A DNA stretch of 61,212 nt, taken from a virus. The notes under the pieces are model-generated. The model did no database searches and had not been told where the DNA came from. It worked only from the letters and a program-made list of their open reading frames with translations. The stretch lies in the IMG/VR virus record IMGVR_UViG_3300008113_000047, positions 1 to 61,212 of that record; one strand, 5' to 3'. Numbering within the stretch: the first letter of the stretch is position 1; each line of letters opens with the position of its first letter. This document shows positions 34,159 to 61,212 of this stretch, in pieces. A program made the position numbers and the translations under genes.

Positions 34159-34446
34159 ATGTTCATACGATCCTTTAAAGAAATTTCTAATTATGTTCGA
34201 AGCAGTAAATTAGGCAAAGAACATCATTATACTAGAACAAAAACAATTAATGTTTTTCGATGTGACAATTGTGACAGGGATTTTACAAGGGATCATGCTA
34301 AGATAGACCCCAAAAGACTCAGCAACAAATATTTTCATGTTTGCGGAGAATGTGACGTCAAAAAATTTGCCCAACGAATGGGCATTACTAAAAGAAAAAT
34401 TTGGGATATGCCAGTTAGCAGTACATTGCCAATTGGTAAGATTTAA
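34159..34446 (+). CDS. zinc-ribbon protein conserved in T4-like phages
   Basis: A 95-residue basic protein with two CxxC pairs (CDNC and CGEC) separated by about 30 residues, fitting a treble-clef or zinc-ribbon fold. The segments YTRTKT before the first pair and KIWDMPVSSTL at the end match proteins I recall from aquatic T4-like phages. It may bind DNA or RNA. It is on the opposite strand to its neighbours and ends 4 bases inside the iscA-like gene (convergent). Confidence 0.7.
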   Translation: MFIRSFKEISNYVRSSKLGKEHHYTRTKTINVFRCDNCDRDFTRDHAKIDPKRLSNKYFHVCGECDVKKFAQRMGITKRKIWDMPVSSTLPIGKI

Positions 34447-34769
34447 ACTCTAAAACTTTCACCACATCCACAGCGGTCACGCTCATTGGGATTAATAAAA
34501 TCAAATCCTTCATTAAGTCCGTTGCGAACCCAATCCATTGTTAAACCATTTAGATAAGCCAAACTCTTGGCATCGACCAGCACAATAAATTCTGGTTGAC
34601 CAAAATTAGTGACTCCAGGTTCAGCAGTGTATTCATCCACATATTCGATAGTATAGGCCAATCCACTACAGCCTGTGGTTTTTACACCTATGCGAATACC
34701 CACGCCTTTGCCGCGTTTTTCTAAATTCTGTTTAATTCTCTTACGTGCTGTGTCGGTTACGGTAATCAT
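34443..34769 (-). CDS. A-type Fe-S carrier (IscA/ErpA-like)
   Basis: A 108-residue protein of the HesB/IscA family. It keeps the three conserved cysteines: Cys34 in TTGCSGLAY, and Cys100 and Cys102 in the C-terminal CGCG. Such proteins carry Fe-S clusters to target enzymes. It overlaps the iscU-like gene by 29 bases in another frame and ends the Fe-S operon. IscA-like genes alone are common in aquatic phages; a complete operon is not. Confidence 0.9.
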   Translation of the reverse strand: MITVTDTARKRIKQNLEKRGKGVGIRIGVKTTGCSGLAYTIEYVDEYTAEPGVTNFGQPEFIVLVDAKSLAYLNGLTMDWVRNGLNEGFDFINPNERDRCGCGESFRV

Positions 34770-35127
34770 TTACAGCCGCCTTAATAGCATCTTCTGCTAG
34801 AATACTACAGTGTATCTTTACTGGGGGTAATGCTAGTTCTGTGGCGATTTCGGAGTTTTTGATTGTTCCTGCTTCGTCGAGAGTTTTTCCTTTGAGCCAT
34901 TCTGTAACGAGACTCGAGCTCGCGATAGCCGATCCGCAGCCATACGTTTTAAATTTTGCATCTGTAATAATACCTGTATCATTGTCTACCTTTATCTGTA
35001 GTTTCATTACATCACCGCAAGCAGGTGCACCAACCATGCCAGTGCCAACATCGGTATCGTTCTTGTCAAAGCTACCAACGTTGCGAGGATTCTCGTAATG
35101 ATCGATTACTTTGTCTGAATATGCCAT
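34741..35127 (-). CDS. IscU-type Fe-S scaffold
   Basis: A 128-residue scaffold with the three cluster cysteines (Cys37 in APACGD, Cys64 in TYGCGSA, Cys107 in KIHCS) and Asp39. It carries LPPVK (100-104), the motif that the host chaperone HscA recognises in true IscU, so it should be able to use the host Isc chaperone system rather than SufU partners. It has a late-type promoter and a Shine-Dalgarno (AAAGGACAT). It sits in an otherwise Suf-type operon, so the cluster is a hybrid. Confidence 0.92.
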   Translation of the reverse strand: MAYSDKVIDHYENPRNVGSFDKNDTDVGTGMVGAPACGDVMKLQIKVDNDTGIITDAKFKTYGCGSAIASSSLVTEWLKGKTLDEAGTIKNSEIATELALPPVKIHCSILAEDAIKAAVNDYRNRHST

Positions 35128-35130
35128 ATT

Positions 35131-36279
35131 TTATGTCCTTTTAGAATTGTATTTATCGTAGAATTTTACAAGACCCTGTTTTAAATGTTCAACATCATCT
35201 TTAGTATTGTAGCAAGCCCAACTCAATCTAAGTATTCCATTTGGGAATTTTTCTTCTACAATTGGTCTTGCATTTAAATGACCATATTTTAATACAATTC
35301 CTTCGTTAAGTAAAAATTCTCCTACATAAGCAGGATGGTGGCCATGTACGTTGAAGCCAATTAAGCCACCTTTATAGTAACCTGGGTGGAATATTTCTAT
35401 GAAGTCAAGGTCATTCAACATCATTTGAAAGTTTGCATTCATAAGTTTGTCATGAACTTTAAAACTTTCTAAATCATATGAAGTGAACCAGTCAATTGCT
35501 GAACCTAACATTACTACCCCTGCAATGTTGGGTTTGCCAATTTCTAATTTCCAAGGGAGTAGTGTACTATTGCTATCACCTAATATAGTAGGTTCTAACT
35601 TGTCTAAATACTTTTGTTTCCCGTATAACATGCCAACACCCGTTGGACCATAAAATTTATGTCCAGTAAATGTTAAAAAATCAATATTGAAATCTTGCAC
35701 GTCTATTGTTTCTCTGCCAATGCTTAAACTTGCATCTAGCAAAGTTATCCCGTCATATTCTTTGACTTTATCAAATATACTTTTAACAGGTTGTACATAA
35801 CCAATACTGTTAGAGATATGGCTCATACTGAACAATATCTTACCATCACAGCCATTGAGTAAATCTTCAAGATGACCAAGATCCATACTGCCATCTTTGA
35901 TAACATTTACGGTTTCAAATCTAAAACCATATTCAATGGACATGTATTGCCAAATGAGAAAATTAGCATGGTGTTCACTTTCAGGAACAATTACACAATC
36001 ATTTGAATGCCATTTGTGACAAATGCTCTTGGCAATCATGTTTATGCCATGATTGTTTCCTTGAGTAAAAATTATTTCGTTGTCTTTTTTAGAATTAATT
36101 AATAATTTTACTTTTTGTCTAATAAACTCATACTCATCCCTTGCATCAATTTTATTACAAATATCAAGGTAGGAATCCTTTACCTGATTAGGAATTATAG
36201 TTTGTGATGCACTGTTTAAGTATGTTTTGTCTGGTAAAGTAAAATCGCTTTTAACTTTGGAAAAAATCTTTGAGTTCAT
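35131..36279 (-). CDS. SufS-like PLP protein lacking the desulfurase cysteine
   Basis: A 382-residue class V aminotransferase fold protein, start 36279 inside the end of the sufB/D-like gene. The PLP lysine is present (Lys208 in TGHKFYGPTG) as are His104 (SEHHAN) and Asp182. The loop that in SufS carries the catalytic cysteine (GHHCAMP in E. coli) reads GHLNARP here: Asn336 replaces Cys. The PLP-contacting Gln (DGAQ) is also changed (DASL). The rest aligns well, including RLSWACYNT. It probably binds PLP but cannot form the usual persulfide. It may be a decoy, a partner-binding subunit or a different PLP enzyme. Confidence 0.85.
   Translation of the reverse strand: MNSKIFSKVKSDFTLPDKTYLNSASQTIIPNQVKDSYLDICNKIDARDEYEFIRQKVKLLINSKKDNEIIFTQGNNHGINMIAKSICHKWHSNDCVIVPESEHHANFLIWQYMSIEYGFRFETVNVIKDGSMDLGHLEDLLNGCDGKILFSMSHISNSIGYVQPVKSIFDKVKEYDGITLLDASLSIGRETIDVQDFNIDFLTFTGHKFYGPTGVGMLYGKQKYLDKLEPTILGDSNSTLLPWKLEIGKPNIAGVVMLGSAIDWFTSYDLESFKVHDKLMNANFQMMLNDLDFIEIFHPGYYKGGLIGFNVHGHHPAYVGEFLLNEGIVLKYGHLNARPIVEEKFPNGILRLSWACYNTKDDVEHLKQGLVKFYDKYNSKRT
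35149..35157 (-). promoter_or_regulatory. late promoter GATAAATAC inside the Fe-S operon
   Basis: The motif lies 22 bases before the iscU-like start, within the last codons of the sufS-like gene. It would let iscU and iscA be expressed late without the suf genes. Confidence 0.5.
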
Positions 36280-37075
36280 CTTTAATGTCTTGATATTCAA
36301 TAAGTTCCAACACACTATCTTGATGCAGGGTTTTTAACAAGTTCTCAGCACTGACTTTATCAATGCCCTTGCTTTCTAAATACCATAGACTATGTTCGTC
36401 AATTGTAGTAACTTCACAACTATGATACGCCCGTACTTGTCCACAGTCAATAACCATTTGTGGAGTACTAAATGCTTGTGAAGTTTCGTCACAGACAATA
36501 CTGGTATTAGTTACACTGGACACGCTGTCTATCATGTCTTCTTCAATTTTAACAATACCCTGAAAGACAGTTCGACTATTTTTTCCAGCAATACTGTTTA
36601 CAAACGTGTTGCTCTCTGCACAAGGACCAGCGTGATAAACTTTGCTTATAATCTCACTGCTACCGCCAACCCCATTTTCTGCTAGACCAAAGATATTAAT
36701 AACAGAGTTTTCGTATAGCTCACATTCAAATATATGCTTATTAAGTTTCCCGTCTTTAACAAAAATCCCAATATTAATAATTGAATTTGGTTCAGCAGTT
36801 ACATTGTAAATAAAAACCTGTTGAGTATTTTTAGATCCATCGCATAGAATGAATAAGTCTAGCCTACTACTGTCTCTTCCAAGCACTTGTAAATTTTTGC
36901 ATAACAAATCTGATTCAGTTGGATTCATACGTAGAACCATCAAGTCATCAGTATTTTCTTTTATCATTAAGCAATTTGCATCAATGACCTTAAATTTTTT
37001 ACCAAAGTACTGTGTAGGACTGTTTGACCAATCTGGGTCTTGTGAATCAACTTTAAGAAAACTCTCGATAGCCAT
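36251..37075 (-). CDS. SufB/SufD-family scaffold protein (short, SufD-like)
   Basis: A 274-residue beta-helix protein of the SufBD family; E. coli SufB and SufD are over 420 residues, so the N-terminal part is shortened. The conserved core is clear: KNSRTVFQGIV, NTSIVCDETSQAFSTP, then VRAYHSCEVTTIDEHSLWYLESKGI. The His of AYHSC matches the cluster-site His of SufD. Only one such gene is present, where bacteria need SufB plus SufD; it could be a homodimer or join host SufB. It overlaps sufC by 23 bases and the sufS-like gene by 29. Confidence 0.85.
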   Translation of the reverse strand: MAIESFLKVDSQDPDWSNSPTQYFGKKFKVIDANCLMIKENTDDLMVLRMNPTESDLLCKNLQVLGRDSSRLDLFILCDGSKNTQQVFIYNVTAEPNSIINIGIFVKDGKLNKHIFECELYENSVINIFGLAENGVGGSSEIISKVYHAGPCAESNTFVNSIAGKNSRTVFQGIVKIEEDMIDSVSSVTNTSIVCDETSQAFSTPQMVIDCGQVRAYHSCEVTTIDEHSLWYLESKGIDKVSAENLLKTLHQDSVLELIEYQDIKDELKDFFQS

Positions 37076-37778
37076 TTGAAATGATCCTTTTAATTATTTT
37101 CTTATCACCTGACTCCACGATTCTTCCATCTATGATAACATGCACATGTGTGGGCTCTATTGCTTCAAGGATCGTTGGTTGATGTGTGATAATGATAGCT
37201 GCCTTTCCTTTTTGTGAGAGGAAAGATTTTAAACTTTTAAATACTTCAGTTAGTGTGTCTAAGTCTAAGCCACTGTCAATATCGTCTAAAATTGTAAGAG
37301 ATGGATTGAGCATGTATAACTGTACAATTTCATTTTTCTTTTTTTCGCCTGCGCTTGCTCCTACGTTGTAATCTCGATTAGACCATTCGCTTCCTAGATC
37401 AAATTGTTTTATTAAATTTTTATAATCATTAATAACGTCAGTTGATGATCTTTTATCATTTCGAGCATTCAAAATTTGTCTAGTTAAATTTAAATTTGTA
37501 ATGCCATTAATTTCAGGTGGCTCCTGAAATGTTGTAAAAATTCCTAATTTACTTCTTTCATTTGGATCTAAACTGTTTAAAGATTTTCTCTTAAAGTTTA
37601 TTTTACCTTTGACAACGCTAAGATCTGATTTGCCAGCAATAACACTGACTAAGGAACTTTTGCCTGAACCTGTTGGTCCTAAAATGGCGTGAATTTCGCC
37701 TTCATTGATTTCTAAATTGATATCTTCCAAAATTGGAATAACGTCGTAATTGACGGAGAGATTTGTAATTTTTAACAT
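37053..37778 (-). CDS. SufC-like ABC ATPase with altered catalytic motifs
   Basis: A 241-residue ATPase of the SufC type: Walker A GPTGSGKS (34-41), Q-loop FTTFQEPPEI and a THQP switch. Two motifs differ from SufC. The signature is SAGEKKKNE instead of SGGEKKRN (Gly to Ala at 143), and Walker B reads LTILDDIDSGLD, with Asp166 where the catalytic Glu stands in SufC (LDESDSGLD). ATP binding is likely intact but hydrolysis may be slow. It is the first gene of the operon, behind a strong host-type promoter. Confidence 0.88.
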   Translation of the reverse strand: MLKITNLSVNYDVIPILEDINLEINEGEIHAILGPTGSGKSSLVSVIAGKSDLSVVKGKINFKRKSLNSLDPNERSKLGIFTTFQEPPEINGITNLNLTRQILNARNDKRSSTDVINDYKNLIKQFDLGSEWSNRDYNVGASAGEKKKNEIVQLYMLNPSLTILDDIDSGLDLDTLTEVFKSLKSFLSQKGKAAIIITHQPTILEAIEPTHVHVIIDGRIVESGDKKIIKRIISNGYREFS

Positions 37779-38283: not shown

Positions 38284-39300
38284 TCAAGTATTGCTGTAGT
38301 CAAACAATGCCTTGCTGGCTAGGTTCTTAGCCTTGCTTTCGCACATAATATCAAATTGGTCATTAAAAGTCAAAGCCCAATCATTAACTTCTTTATTCCA
38401 ATAAAAATTACTGTGTGCTCTAAGTTTTTGTTTTTTATGTCCAGACTCTAACAGAGTCTTGTGATCAGGTTTAGTCAGTGTGCAATGACCAACCAACACG
38501 TCTTCCCTGCTAACGCTATAGTGCATAGTAGGGCGAAGACCACGCCAACTGTCAAGTACTTGCTGTACTTTTGGGTCATTAGGCATGATGTATTCACCTT
38601 CTTTAATCCAATGATGATGGATATCAAGTACAATAGGAAGAAGGTCACCAAGAGACAAGCAAGTAGATAAACCATGGCTCATTTCCTCATTTTCAATGGT
38701 GATGCAATTTCTTGCTTCGGGGGTAAGTTTTTTGTAGGCAGCTCGAATACCTTCGGGACCGGCTCTACCCGAGATGTGGACGTTGATCTTAAAGTCCTGA
38801 AATTGTTTACCGTAGCCCATGTACCTGACCATATCTGCATGATATTCAAACTCCTCTATGCTTCGCCGAACAATGTCCGGATTATCACTAGCAAGAACAG
38901 TAAACTGACCAGGATGCATAGAAACACGGGTATTGCTTGCACGAGCACTATCCCCAATAAGGATAAAATTGCGTTCAAGATACTGGACAACGTCAGGCTT
39001 GCTCCAAAAGTAACTCCAATCAGACTGGGTATAAGCAGGAAGAATGTCGCTACTAAGGCGAACCATGCGGAGTCTTTCATGTTGTTTACCTACCCTTTCA
39101 ACAAGCAAACGAGTCGCTTCTAAGTTCTGGACCATTAGATCCCATAGCTTTTGTTCAGCAACTTCTTTTGTTTGTTTATTTAACCAAGTTATGGTGGTAG
39201 CACCAGTGTTGTATTGCTTACAATCATCAGTAGCCCTGATACCATCTACTTGATCAGGAGTGTCGATCCACTTACATGCAAAGCCTATGCGCTTAATCAT
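38284..39300 (-). CDS. UV-damage endonuclease (UvdE/UvsE-like)
   Basis: A 338-residue TIM-barrel repair nuclease. Family features include the start GFACKW, the segment LRMVRLSSDILP, the metal-site stretches MHPGQF, NVHISG, TIENEE and DIHHHW, and a C-terminal SHKKQKLRAHSNFYW-type region. The enzyme nicks DNA 5' to UV photoproducts. A phage exposed to sunlight would gain from this. It overlaps the cytidylyltransferase gene by 4 bases. Confidence 0.88.
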   Translation of the reverse strand: MIKRIGFACKWIDTPDQVDGIRATDDCKQYNTGATTITWLNKQTKEVAEQKLWDLMVQNLEATRLLVERVGKQHERLRMVRLSSDILPAYTQSDWSYFWSKPDVVQYLERNFILIGDSARASNTRVSMHPGQFTVLASDNPDIVRRSIEEFEYHADMVRYMGYGKQFQDFKINVHISGRAGPEGIRAAYKKLTPEARNCITIENEEMSHGLSTCLSLGDLLPIVLDIHHHWIKEGEYIMPNDPKVQQVLDSWRGLRPTMHYSVSREDVLVGHCTLTKPDHKTLLESGHKKQKLRAHSNFYWNKEVNDWALTFNDQFDIMCESKAKNLASKALFDYSNT

Positions 39301-39704: not shown

Positions 39705-39889
39705 TACCAATGCCTTATAACGCCTGCTACAATAAAAAAGTTTGTTATAATATATGTTAACACAATTGCAGTCCGAATGCAAGCGATTTTATCTGCTTCT
39801 TCATCCGAACTGCCGGATTTTTCACCCAAAGCCTTAGCCCAAAGACGCCAAAGTTTCTTAACCTTCGTAAACTGCTGAATTGCCCGCAT
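39704..39889 (-). CDS. small conserved membrane protein
   Basis: A 61-residue protein with a basic, amphipathic N-terminal half (KKLWRLWAKALGEK), an acidic turn (SDEEADKIA) and a C-terminal membrane helix. I recall close relatives in aquatic T4-like phages. It overlaps the queD-like gene by 32 bases and the cytidylyltransferase gene by one. Function unknown. Confidence 0.65.
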   Translation of the reverse strand: MRAIQQFTKVKKLWRLWAKALGEKSGSSDEEADKIACIRTAIVLTYIITNFFIVAGVIRHW

Positions 39890-40397
39890 GTTCAAAAACT
39901 TCTACTGACCGTAATTTAACATCAGAACCAACTGGGTATCGAGCACCAAACAGTTTTACTGTTTTGCCTGTTTGGTCTTTTAATTCCCAACCTTCGCCTC
40001 TTTGGAAAGTTTCCAAAATTTCTTGCATGGTTTTAAAAGCTAATTCGCTGAATTTTTCACATCCTACACCTTCTACGATACGGACGTCACACACTCCACC
40101 TTTATCTTGTAAGCCCAAACTAGCCATCTTTTCAAACATGGCACGATGGGGATCATCTTCAGCAATTACCAAAGTATGATCAAACATGTGGTCAGCCCAC
40201 TCTTTAAATGCTTTGAGTCCGCCAAAGTCCATGACCCAATTTCGAGTATCCAGTGTTTCAGATTCAAAAACTAGTTTAATACCAATTGAATATCCGTGCA
40301 GTAATGAGCAGTGACTATGTGTACTACGCCACTGTCTAAAACAGCATGATAAGCCGCGGTCGTTACCGTATGTTTTTGTTGAAAGATATTTTGCCAT
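39858..40397 (-). CDS. queD: 6-carboxytetrahydropterin synthase-like (QueD)
   Basis: A 179-residue member of the PTPS/QueD family, of the branch with CCFRQWRS..SHC..LHGYS in place of the FSAAH...HGH motif, as also found in some alphaproteobacteria and aquatic phages. The conserved MDFGGLK and FDHTLV segments are present. QueD makes the precursor of 7-deazaguanine bases (queuosine in tRNA, or modified phage DNA). No queC, queE or folE is in this window, so host or distant phage genes must supply the rest. Confidence 0.85.
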   Translation of the reverse strand: MAKYLSTKTYGNDRGLSCCFRQWRSTHSHCSLLHGYSIGIKLVFESETLDTRNWVMDFGGLKAFKEWADHMFDHTLVIAEDDPHRAMFEKMASLGLQDKGGVCDVRIVEGVGCEKFSELAFKTMQEILETFQRGEGWELKDQTGKTVKLFGARYPVGSDVKLRSVEVFEHAGNSAVYEG

Positions 40398-47341: not shown

Positions 47342-48151
47342 TTACTTGCCAACGTTAACATTTGCACCTGCACCAATTACAAGGGTATTACCCTTAAAAC
47401 TAGATACTGCTTCTGCCATCTTAAGTGCCGCATCAGCTTGCTTCATACGAGCTTGTGCATCCATGTACTGGATAGCGCCAGCATTTGTATTAAGTGCCGC
47501 AATACGACGAGCTTCTGCTTCAGCAGTCTTAACTTCAACTTCCTTTTGCTTGAGCTCATTCTTAGCCTTGACCAACTCGTTAGCACTTGCCACAACTGAG
47601 TCAGCAGGTACAATATTACGAATCAACACTTGACCAATAACCAAACTGCCGTCAAGTTTTTCTTCAGCAAGTGATTTTTGGATTTGTTCTTTAATTGCCT
47701 GTTCCATTGACTGACGTGCATCTGCCATGTCCAATGCTTCGTACTTACGTGCTTCTTTGTAGATAGCATTACGAGTAGTTTGAACAATATAATTGTACAT
47801 CAAGTAAATGTCGCCGTTATGTCGAGCGTGGAATGCTTGACTCTTTTGGCTGTAAAGTTCAGCTACTTGTGCTTGATTGATGTTATAGATAACCACAGCA
47901 TCAAAGTCTTTCATTGTGCTATTATCTTTAGCCACAGGAGTCATGTCATCTAACTTAACATTAACGTCCTTAATTGGGAATGTAAGCACATCGCCAATCA
48001 ACACTTGATTGAACGAGCCGGGAAGTAGTTCGCCTTGCTGGACTTGTTTGTCAAAGCCAACTCGAACACCAACTTCACCAGTTTCGATACGAGTGCAACC
48101 TGTAGCAAGAACTGCCGCGGCAAGAATAGAGAGAGTAAAAATACGTGTCAT
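47342..48151 (-). CDS. SPFH/prohibitin-like lipoprotein
   Basis: A 269-residue protein with a lipoprotein signal (lipobox LATGC, Cys19), then a band-7/SPFH domain (TGEVGVRVGFDKQVQQGELLPG start; ANELVKAKNELKQKEVEVKTAEAEA coiled coil near the end). Prohibitin-like proteins form membrane rings or scaffolds. The placement beside rIIA and rIIB suggests an envelope or exclusion function during infection. A promoter at 48212-48240 precedes it and a terminator follows. Confidence 0.82.
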   Translation of the reverse strand: MTRIFTLSILAAAVLATGCTRIETGEVGVRVGFDKQVQQGELLPGSFNQVLIGDVLTFPIKDVNVKLDDMTPVAKDNSTMKDFDAVVIYNINQAQVAELYSQKSQAFHARHNGDIYLMYNYIVQTTRNAIYKEARKYEALDMADARQSMEQAIKEQIQKSLAEEKLDGSLVIGQVLIRNIVPADSVVASANELVKAKNELKQKEVEVKTAEAEARRIAALNTNAGAIQYMDAQARMKQADAALKMAEAVSSFKGNTLVIGAGANVNVGK

Positions 48152-55496: not shown

Positions 55497-55581
55497 TGGT
55501 GCGACTGCCCGGAATCGAACCGGGATGCCTGTGGGCGAGAGATTTTAAGTCTCTTGTGTCTACCTATTTCACCACAGTCGC
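55497..55581 (-). tRNA. tRNA-Leu (UAA), copy 1
   Basis: Class II tRNA with a 7-bp acceptor stem (GCGACTG / CAGTCGC), a D arm, an anticodon stem AGAGA/TCTCT with loop CTTAAAA (anticodon TAA), a long variable arm, T arm CCCGG-TTCGATT-CCGGG and an encoded ACCA end. It reads UUA and, by wobble, UUG leucine codons, which fit an AT-rich phage. Confidence 0.93.
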
Positions 55582-55643: not shown

Positions 55644-55728
55644 TGGTGCCTGCACCCAGAATCGAACTGGGAAGGATTTCTCCGGCAGATTTTAAGTCTG
55701 CTGTGTTTACCGATTTCACCATGCAGGC
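55644..55728 (-). tRNA. tRNA-Leu (UAA), copy 2
   Basis: Acceptor stem GCCTGCA / TGCAGGC, anticodon stem GCAGA/TCTGC with loop CTTAAAA (anticodon TAA), a long variable arm, T arm CCCAG-TTCGATT-CTGGG and encoded ACCA. Its body differs from copy 1, so the two are not a recent duplication. Confidence 0.93.
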
Positions 55729-57782: not shown

Positions 57783-58616
57783 TTATACGTCAAAACTAAA
57801 ATTAGGATCAAACACTTCAGCTTGGTGTTCATATCCTTTGTAACCACGTGGGTTACTCAGTACACGAGTAGTTCCAATAGTGTAGTCAACTGGATCGTGC
57901 ATGTGACCATGACACCATACCTTAATGTTGGGATGGTCTAAAATAAAATCACCTAGTCTGCTGTGATATCCACCATTCATATGAAATTCATTTTTGTAAT
58001 ATTCATTAACACTCAACTCAGTTGGTGCGTGATGACTTACTACAACAACTTTTTCATCAGGATGAGCTTCTAAAAAAGTTTTTAATTTTTCCATTGTTTC
58101 GTGAAACACGCCTTTAGCATAAGCAGGAGTGAACTTACTAGTGTAATAACTGTCTCCCCAAGCGGTATCAACTTTGATACTGTTACCAAATTTAATTGAA
58201 CCACTAAAATCAGCCATGCGTTGTTTAAGCACACTGGCAGTGATAGGATCGCCTTTGTTCATATCAGTCCAAAATGTGCCACCAAAGAACCACACGTCAT
58301 CAATCTTGATTGATTCTGCTTCTAAGAAGTGTACGTTGTCTGGCAGTTCACGACCTATTCGAATATGTGTGTCGTCATAGCTGTTGCTATAGTGCTCATG
58401 ATTGCCTGCAATATAAATCACATGACGATACTTGCACAATTCTTCATTGATGAATCTACGATATCTATCAGCAATAAATGTATTTTGTTTAGCATTGTCA
58501 GCCAAACGTAGGTGACCAGCTTCCATGATATCCCCAGCCATAATGAGTACATCACCGCCTGGCAAATTAATGTCCTGGAAGTTGATGTGCATGTCGCTGA
58601 CTAGATTGATTTTCAT
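57783..58616 (-). CDS. metallophosphoesterase (calcineurin-like), second copy
   Basis: A 277-residue phosphoesterase with motifs SDMHINF (7-13), GDIME (about 28-32), GNHEHY (about 71-76), SHHAP (about 194-198) and GHMHD (about 237-241). It is larger than the 53018 enzyme and of a different subgroup. The tRNA-Arg gene lies just upstream. Substrate unknown; nucleotide or nucleic acid ends are likely. Confidence 0.88.
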   Translation of the reverse strand: MKINLVSDMHINFQDINLPGGDVLIMAGDIMEAGHLRLADNAKQNTFIADRYRRFINEELCKYRHVIYIAGNHEHYSNSYDDTHIRIGRELPDNVHFLEAESIKIDDVWFFGGTFWTDMNKGDPITASVLKQRMADFSGSIKFGNSIKVDTAWGDSYYTSKFTPAYAKGVFHETMEKLKTFLEAHPDEKVVVVSHHAPTELSVNEYYKNEFHMNGGYHSRLGDFILDHPNIKVWCHGHMHDPVDYTIGTTRVLSNPRGYKGYEHQAEVFDPNFSFDV

Positions 58617-58633: not shown

Positions 58634-58708
58634 TGGTCCGGCGACCAGGAATCGAACCTGGATTAATAGCTTAGAAGGCTACTGTTCTATCCGTTGAACT
58701 ATCGCCAG
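58634..58708 (-). tRNA. tRNA-Arg (UCU)
   Basis: A complete 75-base class I tRNA: acceptor CTGGCGA / TCGCCGG, D arm GTTC-AACGGATA-GAAC, anticodon stem GTAGC/GCTAT with loop CTTCTAA (anticodon TCT), T arm CCAGG-TTCGATT-CCTGG and encoded ACCA. It reads AGA/AGG arginine codons, which are common in AT-rich phages and rare in many hosts. Confidence 0.95.
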
Positions 58709-58995: not shown

Positions 58996-59005
58996 CATAA
59001 ATATG
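58996..59005 (+). promoter_or_regulatory. late promoter CATAAATATG before the small membrane-protein operon
   Basis: The plus-strand motif lies 24 bases before the ATG at 59030, with the ribosome site TGGAGCG between them. It is back to back with the early-type minus-strand promoter. Confidence 0.55.
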
Positions 59006-59029
59006 GATATAGTAAAAAATGGAGCGATT

Positions 59030-59311
59030 ATGAACGAAATTTTTAAATTAATTGGTGATTTAGGGTTCCCTATAGCTGTTGCGTTTGCGGGCGGGTACTT
59101 TGTATATTTGACTATCAAACTTCTGTTACAGGGAGTTTTGGGCAGTATCAAAGGTATGGCAGGTATTATCGTAGCATTAGATAATCGTGTTAAAACAATG
59201 AATCACGACGTTATTCGTATTGATACTATCGTATCTAATGCGCTAGGTCTACGTCCGGATGCTGATCGTATTGCTCGAGCAGACGGAAAGAATGATGCAA
59301 GAAGGGATTGA
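59030..59311 (+). CDS. small membrane protein, paralogue 1
   Basis: A 93-residue protein with an N-terminal membrane helix (GFPIAVAFAGGYFVYLTIKLLL) and a charged helical tail (DNRVKTMNHDVIRIDTIV). It resembles the gene at 59784 across its length. The start at 59030 is chosen because of the ribosome site GGAGCG; an upstream ATG at 59003 lies inside the promoter. Holin-like or membrane-anchor function is possible. Confidence 0.7.
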   Translation: MNEIFKLIGDLGFPIAVAFAGGYFVYLTIKLLLQGVLGSIKGMAGIIVALDNRVKTMNHDVIRIDTIVSNALGLRPDADRIARADGKNDARRD

Positions 59312-59783: not shown

Positions 59784-60185
59784 ATGACTGAAATAGTAGA
59801 GTTAGTAAACAAATATGGATTTCCCATTGTCATGGCAGTGGGAATGGGTTATATTATCAAATATGTATGGGAATGGTCAACCAAAGAAGTTAAACCAGTC
59901 ATCTCAGAAGCCAATACAGTTCTTATCGCTCTAATAGATCGTATCCGTATGTTGGACAACGATTTGATTCGTTTAAACCAAAAAGTTAATACTGTGTTAC
60001 ACCTACGTGGTAAGATGATTGAAAGTGATCGTGTTATGGAAGGTGTTAAAGTTGAGCGTGAAGCTTCTGAAAAATTTCAAGAAGCAGTTGCACATGACGG
60101 TAAAAAAGAACAACCTAAAACTATCAAACGCAGAGATGACATTGATCCTGATGATGTAAAAACTGCGGCTGCAGGCGAAGGTTAA
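59784..60185 (+). CDS. small membrane protein, paralogue 2
   Basis: A 133-residue protein with an N-terminal membrane helix (GFPIVMAVGMGYIIKYVWEW), a helical segment with LIDRIRMLDNDLIRLNQKVNTVLHLRG, and a charged, disordered tail. It shares GFPI, GY, ND-x-IR and LxLR with the 59030 protein. An AAGGAG ribosome site precedes it. Similar proteins occur in aquatic T4-like phages as I recall. Confidence 0.7.
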   Translation: MTEIVELVNKYGFPIVMAVGMGYIIKYVWEWSTKEVKPVISEANTVLIALIDRIRMLDNDLIRLNQKVNTVLHLRGKMIESDRVMEGVKVEREASEKFQEAVAHDGKKEQPKTIKRRDDIDPDDVKTAAAGEG

Positions 60186-61212
60186 TTATTTAGAAGTTGC
60201 TATAAACACGCCGTTCCAATCCTCAGGCAATGTTTGTGTTAATTGGAACTCGCAACGTTCTATCCACATGTCATAGTAACCAGTCAATCTACTGTCAAAC
60301 TGATCTCTAAGTTGTTTGCACATACTGATAGCCATGTTAAATTTTTGTGATCTATATGCATTATGCATAGCATCATGTATCTTTTTACTCACATGATACT
60401 CAGCAGTAACATCATCTAATACTGTATAGATAGCAACTCCCACACTCTTACCCTTAACAGCCAGGTCATCTACTTTTAAGAAGAAGAAATCATCACCACA
60501 TTGTTCCACAGTTGCACCGCCAACTAATAATACGCATCCATATTCTTTACACTTGCTTTCAATACGTGCGGCTGTTGACACTGCATCACCTAGTACATCA
60601 TATGAATGACGACGAGTTGATCCCATCTCGCCAATATAACCTAAACCAGTATTGATACCAGCACCCATCTTGACTCCTGGACGTCCTTTAGCCTCTAATT
60701 CAATGCTGAACTTTTTAACAGCTTTCAACATTTTAAGTCCAGTAGCTACTGCTGTCTTAGCATGGTCAGGATCATCAATAGGTGCATTATGAATATGCAT
60801 ACTTGCATCACCAATGTACTTGATAATCATACCATCTGCATCTAGTACAGGTTGTGTAATAGCATCCATGTAGCCGTTCATAACTTCAGTTAGACCTTTA
60901 ACGTCATCACCAAAACTTTCACCTAATGGAGTAAATCCACGTAGGTCTGAAAACACTATAGATACTTCACGTTTAGTTCCGTTCTTGATGATGTCTGGAT
61001 TTTCTTGTAGTAGTTTAACTACTGTAGGACTTGCATATCCCTCAAATTGTTTCTTAATTGCCTGCTTCTGTAAGAACTCGCTTACAAACTTAACGCCATA
61101 AGTATGAAGAGCAACGATAATAAGCCCAAACGTGATTGCAGTCGCGTCTGATAGGATGAGCCAATTAGTGAAAGCGTACATAGTACCAGGAACGACGGCA
61201 CCAACAATAACC
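60186..61212 (-). CDS. class III adenylate cyclase (partial, N-terminus beyond the window)
   Basis: The reading frame stays open to the window end; the visible part starts with two hydrophobic helices, as in CHASE2-type cyclases whose sensor would lie upstream. The cyclase domain has the metal-binding Asp in VFSDLRGFT, KYIGDASM with the second metal Asp and the adenine-selecting Lys, and YDVLGDAVSTAARIES with the adenine-selecting Asp and the Arg. The catalytic Asn of the family (VNxAAR) is Ser here. A C-terminal helical tail follows. It would make cAMP at the membrane. A nucleotide cyclase in a phage is unusual. Confidence 0.85.
   Translation of the reverse strand, partial: VIVGAVVPGTMYAFTNWLILSDATAITFGLIIVALHTYGVKFVSEFLQKQAIKKQFEGYASPTVVKLLQENPDIIKNGTKREVSIVFSDLRGFTPLGESFGDDVKGLTEVMNGYMDAITQPVLDADGMIIKYIGDASMHIHNAPIDDPDHAKTAVATGLKMLKAVKKFSIELEAKGRPGVKMGAGINTGLGYIGEMGSTRRHSYDVLGDAVSTAARIESKCKEYGCVLLVGGATVEQCGDDFFFLKVDDLAVKGKSVGVAIYTVLDDVTAEYHVSKKIHDAMHNAYRSQKFNMAISMCKQLRDQFDSRLTGYYDMWIERCEFQLTQTLPEDWNGVFIATSK

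What the first reader, a model, noticed from the sequence alone, without database searches (positions are those of the whole stretch)
60186..61212. Membrane-linked class III nucleotide cyclase with Ser for the catalytic Asn
The visible sequence holds all metal and base-selecting residues for adenylate cyclase but VSTAAR in place of VNxAAR. The protein seems to continue into a membrane and probably CHASE2 sensor part. A phage that makes or senses cAMP could change host metabolism or counter cyclic-nucleotide signalling defence.
Basis: partly seen in the sequence, partly recalled or inferred. Interest (0 to 1): 0.75.

Follow-up and report, generated by a model that had tools for sequence, protein, structure and literature searches.

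The report
Phage sensor cyclase with remodelled active site
The end of this fragment of a large aquatic phage genome carries the second half of a membrane sensor enzyme that probably makes the signal molecule cAMP; it belongs to a known phage curli/FecR gene module, but in this phage lineage the catalytic asparagine and its surroundings were exchanged once and then kept, which has apparently not been described.

Summary
Window 60186-61211 (-) is the C-terminal 341 codons of a 680-aa protein whose full length is seen in a 100%-identical virus contig. It has a periplasmic CHASE2 sensor, transmembrane helices and a class III cyclase domain. Both metal Asp, substrate Lys and Asp, and catalytic Arg are present; Ser551 replaces the catalytic Asn.

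The Ser is not a sporadic mutation. All 147 scorable viral homologues of this clade carry Asp544+Ser551; all 83 other viral and 58 scorable cellular relatives carry Asn, usually with Ser/Thr at 544. The clade has one origin (100/99 support), nested among Asn-type phage cyclases. Ser is kept through at least 28 TCN/AGY codon switches, and cyclase dN/dS is about 0.05. Nine other positions also distinguish the clade.

The gene belongs to a phage module: CsgF-CsgG-curlin-FecR-(curlin)-CHASE2 cyclase. FecR lies near the gene in 83 of 84 long loci, and precedes 9 of 12 cellular relatives examined. A phage curli/FecR/adenylate-cyclase module was published in 2022 (PMC9599517); I found no description of the Ser clade. 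The most likely role is a FecR-coupled envelope sensor making cAMP for a host receptor. Catalysis and product are untested.

The parts
60186..61212 (-). C-terminal half (full-length residues 340-680) of a CHASE2-transmembrane-class III nucleotide cyclase; the gene runs off the right edge of the window
   Evidence: 100% identical full-length homologue L012 4984-7026
61044..61211 (-). end of the second transmembrane helix and third helix leading into the cytoplasm (residues 340-395)
   Evidence: helices 331-356 and 362-395 in the full-length model
60444..60977 (-). class III cyclase homology domain
   Evidence: PF00211 E 1.2e-20; domain model pLDDT 90.5; CyaB 3r5g Z 26.1, rmsd 1.9 over 189 residues
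60945..60947 (-). metal-binding Asp428
   Evidence: invariant in all viral sequences scored
60807..60821 (-). substrate Lys470 to metal-binding Asp474
   Evidence: invariant in all viral sequences scored
60789..60797 (-). His478 and His480, clade-specific; mostly Ala and Trp/Phe in other relatives
   Evidence: 76/76 in the clade, other residues in the rest
60597..60599 (-). Asp544, second substrate-selecting position; Ser or Thr in most relatives outside the clade
60576..60578 (-). Ser551 (TCA) in place of the catalytic Asn
60564..60566 (-). catalytic Arg555
60189..60413 (-). C-terminal tail (residues 606-680) ending DWNGVFIATSK; a similar ending is seen in many cellular CHASE2 cyclases
59784..60185 (+). 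small membrane protein (phrog_18771, weak holin-like N-terminus), convergent with the cyclase; constant neighbour of the clade, role in the module not shown
59003..59311 (+). second phrog_18771 protein (weak YvrJ-like hit), constant neighbour, role not shown

Best explanation
A phage-encoded envelope-sensing receptor cyclase. Shown: a periplasmic-type CHASE2 domain, transmembrane helices and a cytoplasmic class III cyclase domain in one protein, encoded downstream of phage curli genes (CsgF, CsgG, curlin) and a FecR-domain gene. Inferred: the secreted FecR-domain protein, perhaps with the curli pore or fibre, is the input to CHASE2; the signal crosses the membrane and switches a cyclase dimer that turns ATP into cAMP; the cAMP acts on a host receptor, because the phage records hold no recognisable one. 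The Asn-to-Ser change is inferred to be a maintained re-tuning of the active site rather than a loss.
For: CHASE2 and cyclase domains in one frame. Both metal Asp, Lys, Asp and Arg kept. High-confidence domain model matches cyclases with solved structures at Z 21-26. Ser kept in all 147 clade members scored although its codon switched class at least 28 times. Cyclase dN/dS 0.049, lower than CHASE2 (0.099) or tail (0.145). FecR in 83/84, CsgG in 61/84 and CsgF in 43/84 long clade loci. A FecR protein precedes 9 of 12 cellular CHASE2 cyclases examined, so the pairing is older than the phage module. Precedent: Mycobacterium avium Ma1120 has Lys, Asp and Arg but Ala for the Asn, is active, and loses activity when Ala is changed to Asn (PMC4215837). 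No cNMP-binding domain in 21 phage records, while the control genomes ring.
Against: No activity data exist. About eleven clade-specific positions cluster at the active site, so product or rate may differ from canonical enzymes. Asn and Arg are described as essential in the mammalian enzyme (title of Yan et al. 1997, cited in PMC4215837). The CHASE2 ligand is unknown and the FecR link is by gene order only. The phage's host, and whether it has a cAMP receptor, is unknown.
Confidence: 0.55

Rival explanations
1. A pseudo-cyclase: it binds a nucleotide or only dimerises, and signals as a scaffold or sink without making a cyclic nucleotide.
For: The catalytic Asn is gone and several normally conserved active-site neighbours differ too (Asp469 to Ile, Ala478 to His, Trp480 to His, Ser436 to Gly).
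Against: Both metal Asp, Lys470, Asp544 and Arg555 are invariant in the clade, the cyclase domain is the most constrained part, and Ma1120 is active without the Asn.
Confidence: 0.22
2. An active cyclase with another product or mixed specificity, such as cGMP or a cyclic pyrimidine nucleotide.
For: The remodelled active site and the coupled difference at selectivity position 544 together with 551, without intermediates in the sample. The closest PADLOC profile is the Pycsar cyclase PycC, E 3.3e-15 over the cyclase domain, though this is expected for any class III domain.
Against: Lys470 and Asp544 are the ATP-type pair (as in Ma1120). No Pycsar effector is seen among the immediate neighbours; none was searched for further away.
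Confidence: 0.13
3. Counter-defence: the enzyme floods or confuses host cyclic-nucleotide defence signalling.
For: It is a phage cyclase; only the general idea supports it.
Against: Constant neighbours are curli and FecR genes, not defence or anti-defence genes; a regulated membrane receptor is an odd tool for the task.
Confidence: 0.04
4. A bacterial gene in a misassembled or mis-sorted contig, or a decaying passenger gene.
For: The window is an unverified metagenomic record, and the gene is cut by its edge.
Against: Same gene and neighbours in well over 100 virus contigs, up to 349 kb, and in sequenced cultured phages Melnitz and HTVC008M; strong purifying selection; the only 3 hits of the clade in cellular genomes are in MAG contigs.
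Confidence: 0.01

Closest known systems
Phage curli (T8SS) module with FecR and adenylate cyclase (PMC9599517, 2022; curli operon also in PMC7029224 and PMC9004378)
   Same: Same gene set and order: CsgF, CsgG, curlin, FecR, often a second curlin, then the cyclase.
   Different: Those papers do not mention CHASE2 in the passages searched, nor the Ser clade. HTVC008M has the Asn-type enzyme; Melnitz has the Ser type. The window's relatives extend to contigs of 200-350 kb.
Cellular CHASE2 class III adenylyl cyclases next to FecR proteins (Pseudomonadota)
   Same: CHASE2, transmembrane helices, cyclase, often the same C-terminal ending; FecR gene upstream in 9 of 12 examined.
   Different: Only about 27-35% identical over the full length; all scored ones have Asn, and usually Ser/Thr at 544.
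Ma1120 of Mycobacterium avium (PMC4215837)
   Same: Lys and Asp substrate residues and Arg, with the catalytic Asn replaced; an active adenylyl cyclase. Structure match Z 21.
   Different: Ala instead of Ser, and only 22% identical to the domain model.
CyaB of Pseudomonas aeruginosa (3r5g)
   Same: Best structural match of the cyclase domain, Z 26.1, rmsd 1.9, 31% identity.
   Different: Has the Asn (alignment).

Membership tests
Class III nucleotide cyclase (cyclase homology domain, PF00211) | Sequence family and fold | tested here: met
   PF00211 over its cut-off; model matches solved class III domains at Z 21-26
Class III nucleotide cyclase (cyclase homology domain, PF00211) | Two metal-binding Asp | tested here: met
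   Asp428 and Asp474 invariant
Adenylyl cyclase type of class III | Lys plus Asp (or Thr/Ser) at the substrate-selecting positions | tested here: met
   Lys470 and Asp544
Canonical class III catalytic site with complete Asn-Arg pair | Asn followed by Arg four residues on | tested here: not met
   Ser551 and Arg555. So it is not a canonical-site member; Ma1120 shows that the Asn does not define the class
Adenylyl cyclase (enzyme activity) | Makes cAMP from ATP | not testable with these tools
   needs an assay
CHASE2 receptor proteins | CHASE2 domain followed by transmembrane helices and a cytoplasmic output domain | tested here: met
   PF05226 E 3.4e-39, residues 15-323 of L012; helices 309-395; outside the window
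Phage curli/FecR/adenylate cyclase module of PMC9599517 | CsgF, CsgG, curlin and FecR genes next to the cyclase | tested here: met
   L191 (same virus or a very near one): CsgF E 7e-7, CsgG 2.7e-46, Curlin_rpt 8.9e-7, FecR 3.7e-10; 83/84 long clade loci have FecR
Pycsar | PycC cyclase for a cyclic pyrimidine nucleotide with a linked effector | tested here: inconclusive
   partial PycC profile matches to the cyclase domain only, ATP-type residues, curli/FecR neighbours; product not testable

The most novel reading that the evidence does not exclude
The Asp544/Ser551 clade is a distinct phage-born branch of class III cyclases whose active site was rebuilt as a package (Gly436, Ile469, Ser476, His478, His480, Asp544, Ser551, Thr552 and others), giving altered chemistry: another cyclic product, a different metal or rate regime, or a switch-like enzyme active only when the phage FecR/curli partners signal.
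Probability: 0.3. Interest if true: 0.72.

Novelty: new variant of a known kind. Interest (0 to 1): 0.47.

Why it matters
The function of phage curli modules is an open question in three papers (PMC7029224, PMC9004378, PMC9599517). A conserved membrane cyclase joined to FecR suggests the phage monitors the envelope it has modified and reports by a second messenger. The Ser clade is also a natural test of how dispensable the class III catalytic Asn is: one replacement, then long maintenance under strong selection, with matched Asn-type phage sisters available for comparison.

Tried and rejected
Random mutation or decay: rejected by single origin, codon switching and low dN/dS. Contamination: rejected by many virus contigs and cultured phages. 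Phage-encoded receptor: no cNMP_binding domain in 22 records including one MAG, no PilZ domain in 8; the records may be fragments. The first full-length structure job gave a poor cyclase domain (pLDDT mostly 40-65 in residues 396-480 and 520-560), so only its CHASE2 and helices were used, and the domain was modelled again. The genome-contig scan found only 3 loci, all of the Ser type and so probably phage contigs binned into MAGs; this suggests, but does not prove, that the clade is viral. PHROG 35576 matches the whole protein but has no function assigned; NCBIfam gave no match. One tree (FastTree) needed 2 S/N changes, while the careful IQ-TREE needed 1; the latter is used. Host assignment was not achieved.

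Full report
1. Observation. On the - strand the frame from the stop at 60186-60188 to the window edge is open for 341 codons. PF00211 matches 60444-60977 with E 1.2e-20. The window record is an IMG/VR virus fragment of 61,212 bases. A virus contig of 214,617 bases (L012, handle G001) encodes the identical 341 residues and continues upstream to a 680-aa protein without any frameshift. Its flank carries the same neighbouring genes as the window, so it is the same or a very near virus. CHASE2 covers residues 15-323 (E 3.4e-39) and the cyclase residues 418-595. The full-length model has confident helices at 309-329, 331-356 and 362-395 between them.

2. Active site. In L012 numbering: metal Asp428 and Asp474, Lys470, Asp544, Arg555, and Ser551 in the place of the catalytic Asn. 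The register is fixed by profile alignments to solved cyclases such as CyaB, Cya2 and CyaC, which show Asn there. A domain model made from 72 viral sequences has pLDDT 90.5 and matches CyaB at Z 26.1, rmsd 1.9 over 189 residues, with many other class III cyclases at Z above 21.

3. The Ser is a clade character. Among 147 scorable viral members of the clade, all have Asp544 and Ser551; 83 other viral relatives have Ser/Thr544 and Asn551; 55 cellular rows have Ser/Thr544 and Asn551, and 3 have Arg544 and Asn551 (some viral contigs and cellular genes appear twice because two searches fetched the same place). No Asp-Asn or Thr-Ser intermediate was seen. In a tree built with both positions left out, the Asp/Ser group is one side of a branch (100/99). 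It groups with viral Thr/Asn sequences (100/99 for the group that joins it to six of seven), then with viral Ser/Asn sequences (94/93); cellular ones lie outside. The Asn-to-Ser state needs one change. The direction, Asn first, is inferred from this nesting under midpoint rooting.

4. It is maintained. Ser551 is written TCA, TCT, TCC, AGT or AGC. On a tree of 108 representatives the codon class switched between TCN and AGY at least 28 times by parsimony, with no other residue at this place inside the clade (quick tree, so the number is approximate). TCN and AGY differ at two bases, so this shows sustained selection for Ser. Median pairwise dN/dS over about 90 pairs is 0.049 for the cyclase, 0.099 for CHASE2 and 0.145 for the tail. 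Eleven positions distinguish the clade: Leu429, Gly436, Ile457, Pro460, Ile469, Ser476, His478, His480, Asp544, Ser551 and Thr552. Most lie in the two metal/substrate segments and the Asn-Arg segment. So the site was rebuilt as a whole; whether all the changes came together is not resolved.

5. Does Ser mean inactive? Not by itself. Ma1120 of Mycobacterium avium has Lys101, Asp157 and Arg168 but Ala164 for the Asn; it is active, and changing Ala to Asn drastically lowers activity (PMC4215837). The Lys-Asp-(not Asn)-Arg pattern is the same as here. The mammalian enzyme, by contrast, needs both residues (Yan et al. 1997, as cited there). Activity is therefore likely but unproven.

6. Surroundings. 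In the window's virus (L191) the upstream genes are CsgF (E 7e-7), CsgG (2.7e-46), a curlin-repeat protein (8.9e-7), a FecR-domain protein (3.7e-10), a protein without family, a TerC-like gene on the other strand (identified from sequence by eye, not tested), two small proteins and the cyclase. Melnitz and HTVC008M have the same order. Of 84 clade loci long enough to judge, 83 have FecR, 61 CsgG and 43 CsgF within the stretch held (flanks of 6 kb cut some off). The two small membrane proteins of the window (59003-59311 and 59784-60185, both phrog_18771) accompany 83 of 84 of these loci and 7 of 7 Thr/Asn loci, but 1 of 25 Ser/Asn loci, whose flanks were only 3 kb. In cellular genomes, 9 of 12 CHASE2 cyclases close to the phage ones have a large FecR-domain protein just upstream on the same strand. 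FecR-CHASE2 pairing thus predates the phage module and is the best clue to the input. FecR next to a CHASE2 histidine kinase is also described in the Burkholderia biofilm operon (PMC5192318).

7. Output. No cNMP_binding domain was found in 21 phage records and one MAG, and no PilZ domain in 8 records. If cAMP is made, a host protein must read it. The host is unknown here; Melnitz infects Methylophilales H5P1.

8. What is known. A phage curli/T8SS module with FecR and adenylate cyclase was described in 2022 (PMC9599517), which proposed cAMP in T8SS regulation; the curli genes themselves in 2020 and 2022 (PMC7029224, PMC9004378). Searches for CHASE2 with phage adenylate cyclase, and for phage-encoded adenylate cyclase, found no description of this protein's architecture or of the Ser clade in the open-access library; subscription papers were not searched. 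Verdict: a new variant of a known kind.

9. Limits. Counts come from loci ranked by similarity to the window protein or to HTVC008M-type proteins, so frequencies are not unbiased. Cellular sequences come from about 300 genomes of one phylum. Catalysis, product, ligand and host response are inferred.

Noticed in passing
window 34443-37778 (-): A SUF-like iron-sulphur assembly cluster in a phage: Fe-S_biosyn (SufA-like), NifU_N scaffold, class V aminotransferase (SufS-like), SUFBD core protein and a SufC-like ABC ATPase, all matched in Pfam.
   Followed up: partly
L191 1563-5534: In the near-identical virus, HSP70, HSP20, heme oxygenase and a ferredoxin-dependent bilin reductase lie just upstream of the curli module.
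   Followed up: partly
window 59003-59311 and 59784-60185 (+): Two related small membrane proteins (phrog_18771, weak holin/YvrJ-like hits) that stay beside the Ser-type cyclase in 83 of 84 long loci.
   Followed up: partly
window 55497-55581 and 55644-55728 (-): Two tRNA-Leu genes with the same anticodon (taa) close together, and tRNA-Arg(tct) at 58634-58708.
   Followed up: no
window 57783-58616 (-): A calcineurin-like phosphoesterase (PF00149, phrog_1649) lies near the cyclase, also in L012 and L002; whether it acts on cyclic nucleotides is unknown.
   Followed up: no
window 38284-39300, 39858-40397 and 47342-48151 (-): UvdE UV endonuclease, a 6-pyruvoyl-tetrahydropterin synthase family protein and an SPFH/Band 7 protein.
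   Followed up: no
L085, L086, L087: The only cellular-genome hits of the Ser clade are on contigs of MAGs (Rhodobacteraceae Water_Bin34, Pirellulales BS30m-G48); probably phage contigs binned with the MAG.
   Followed up: partly
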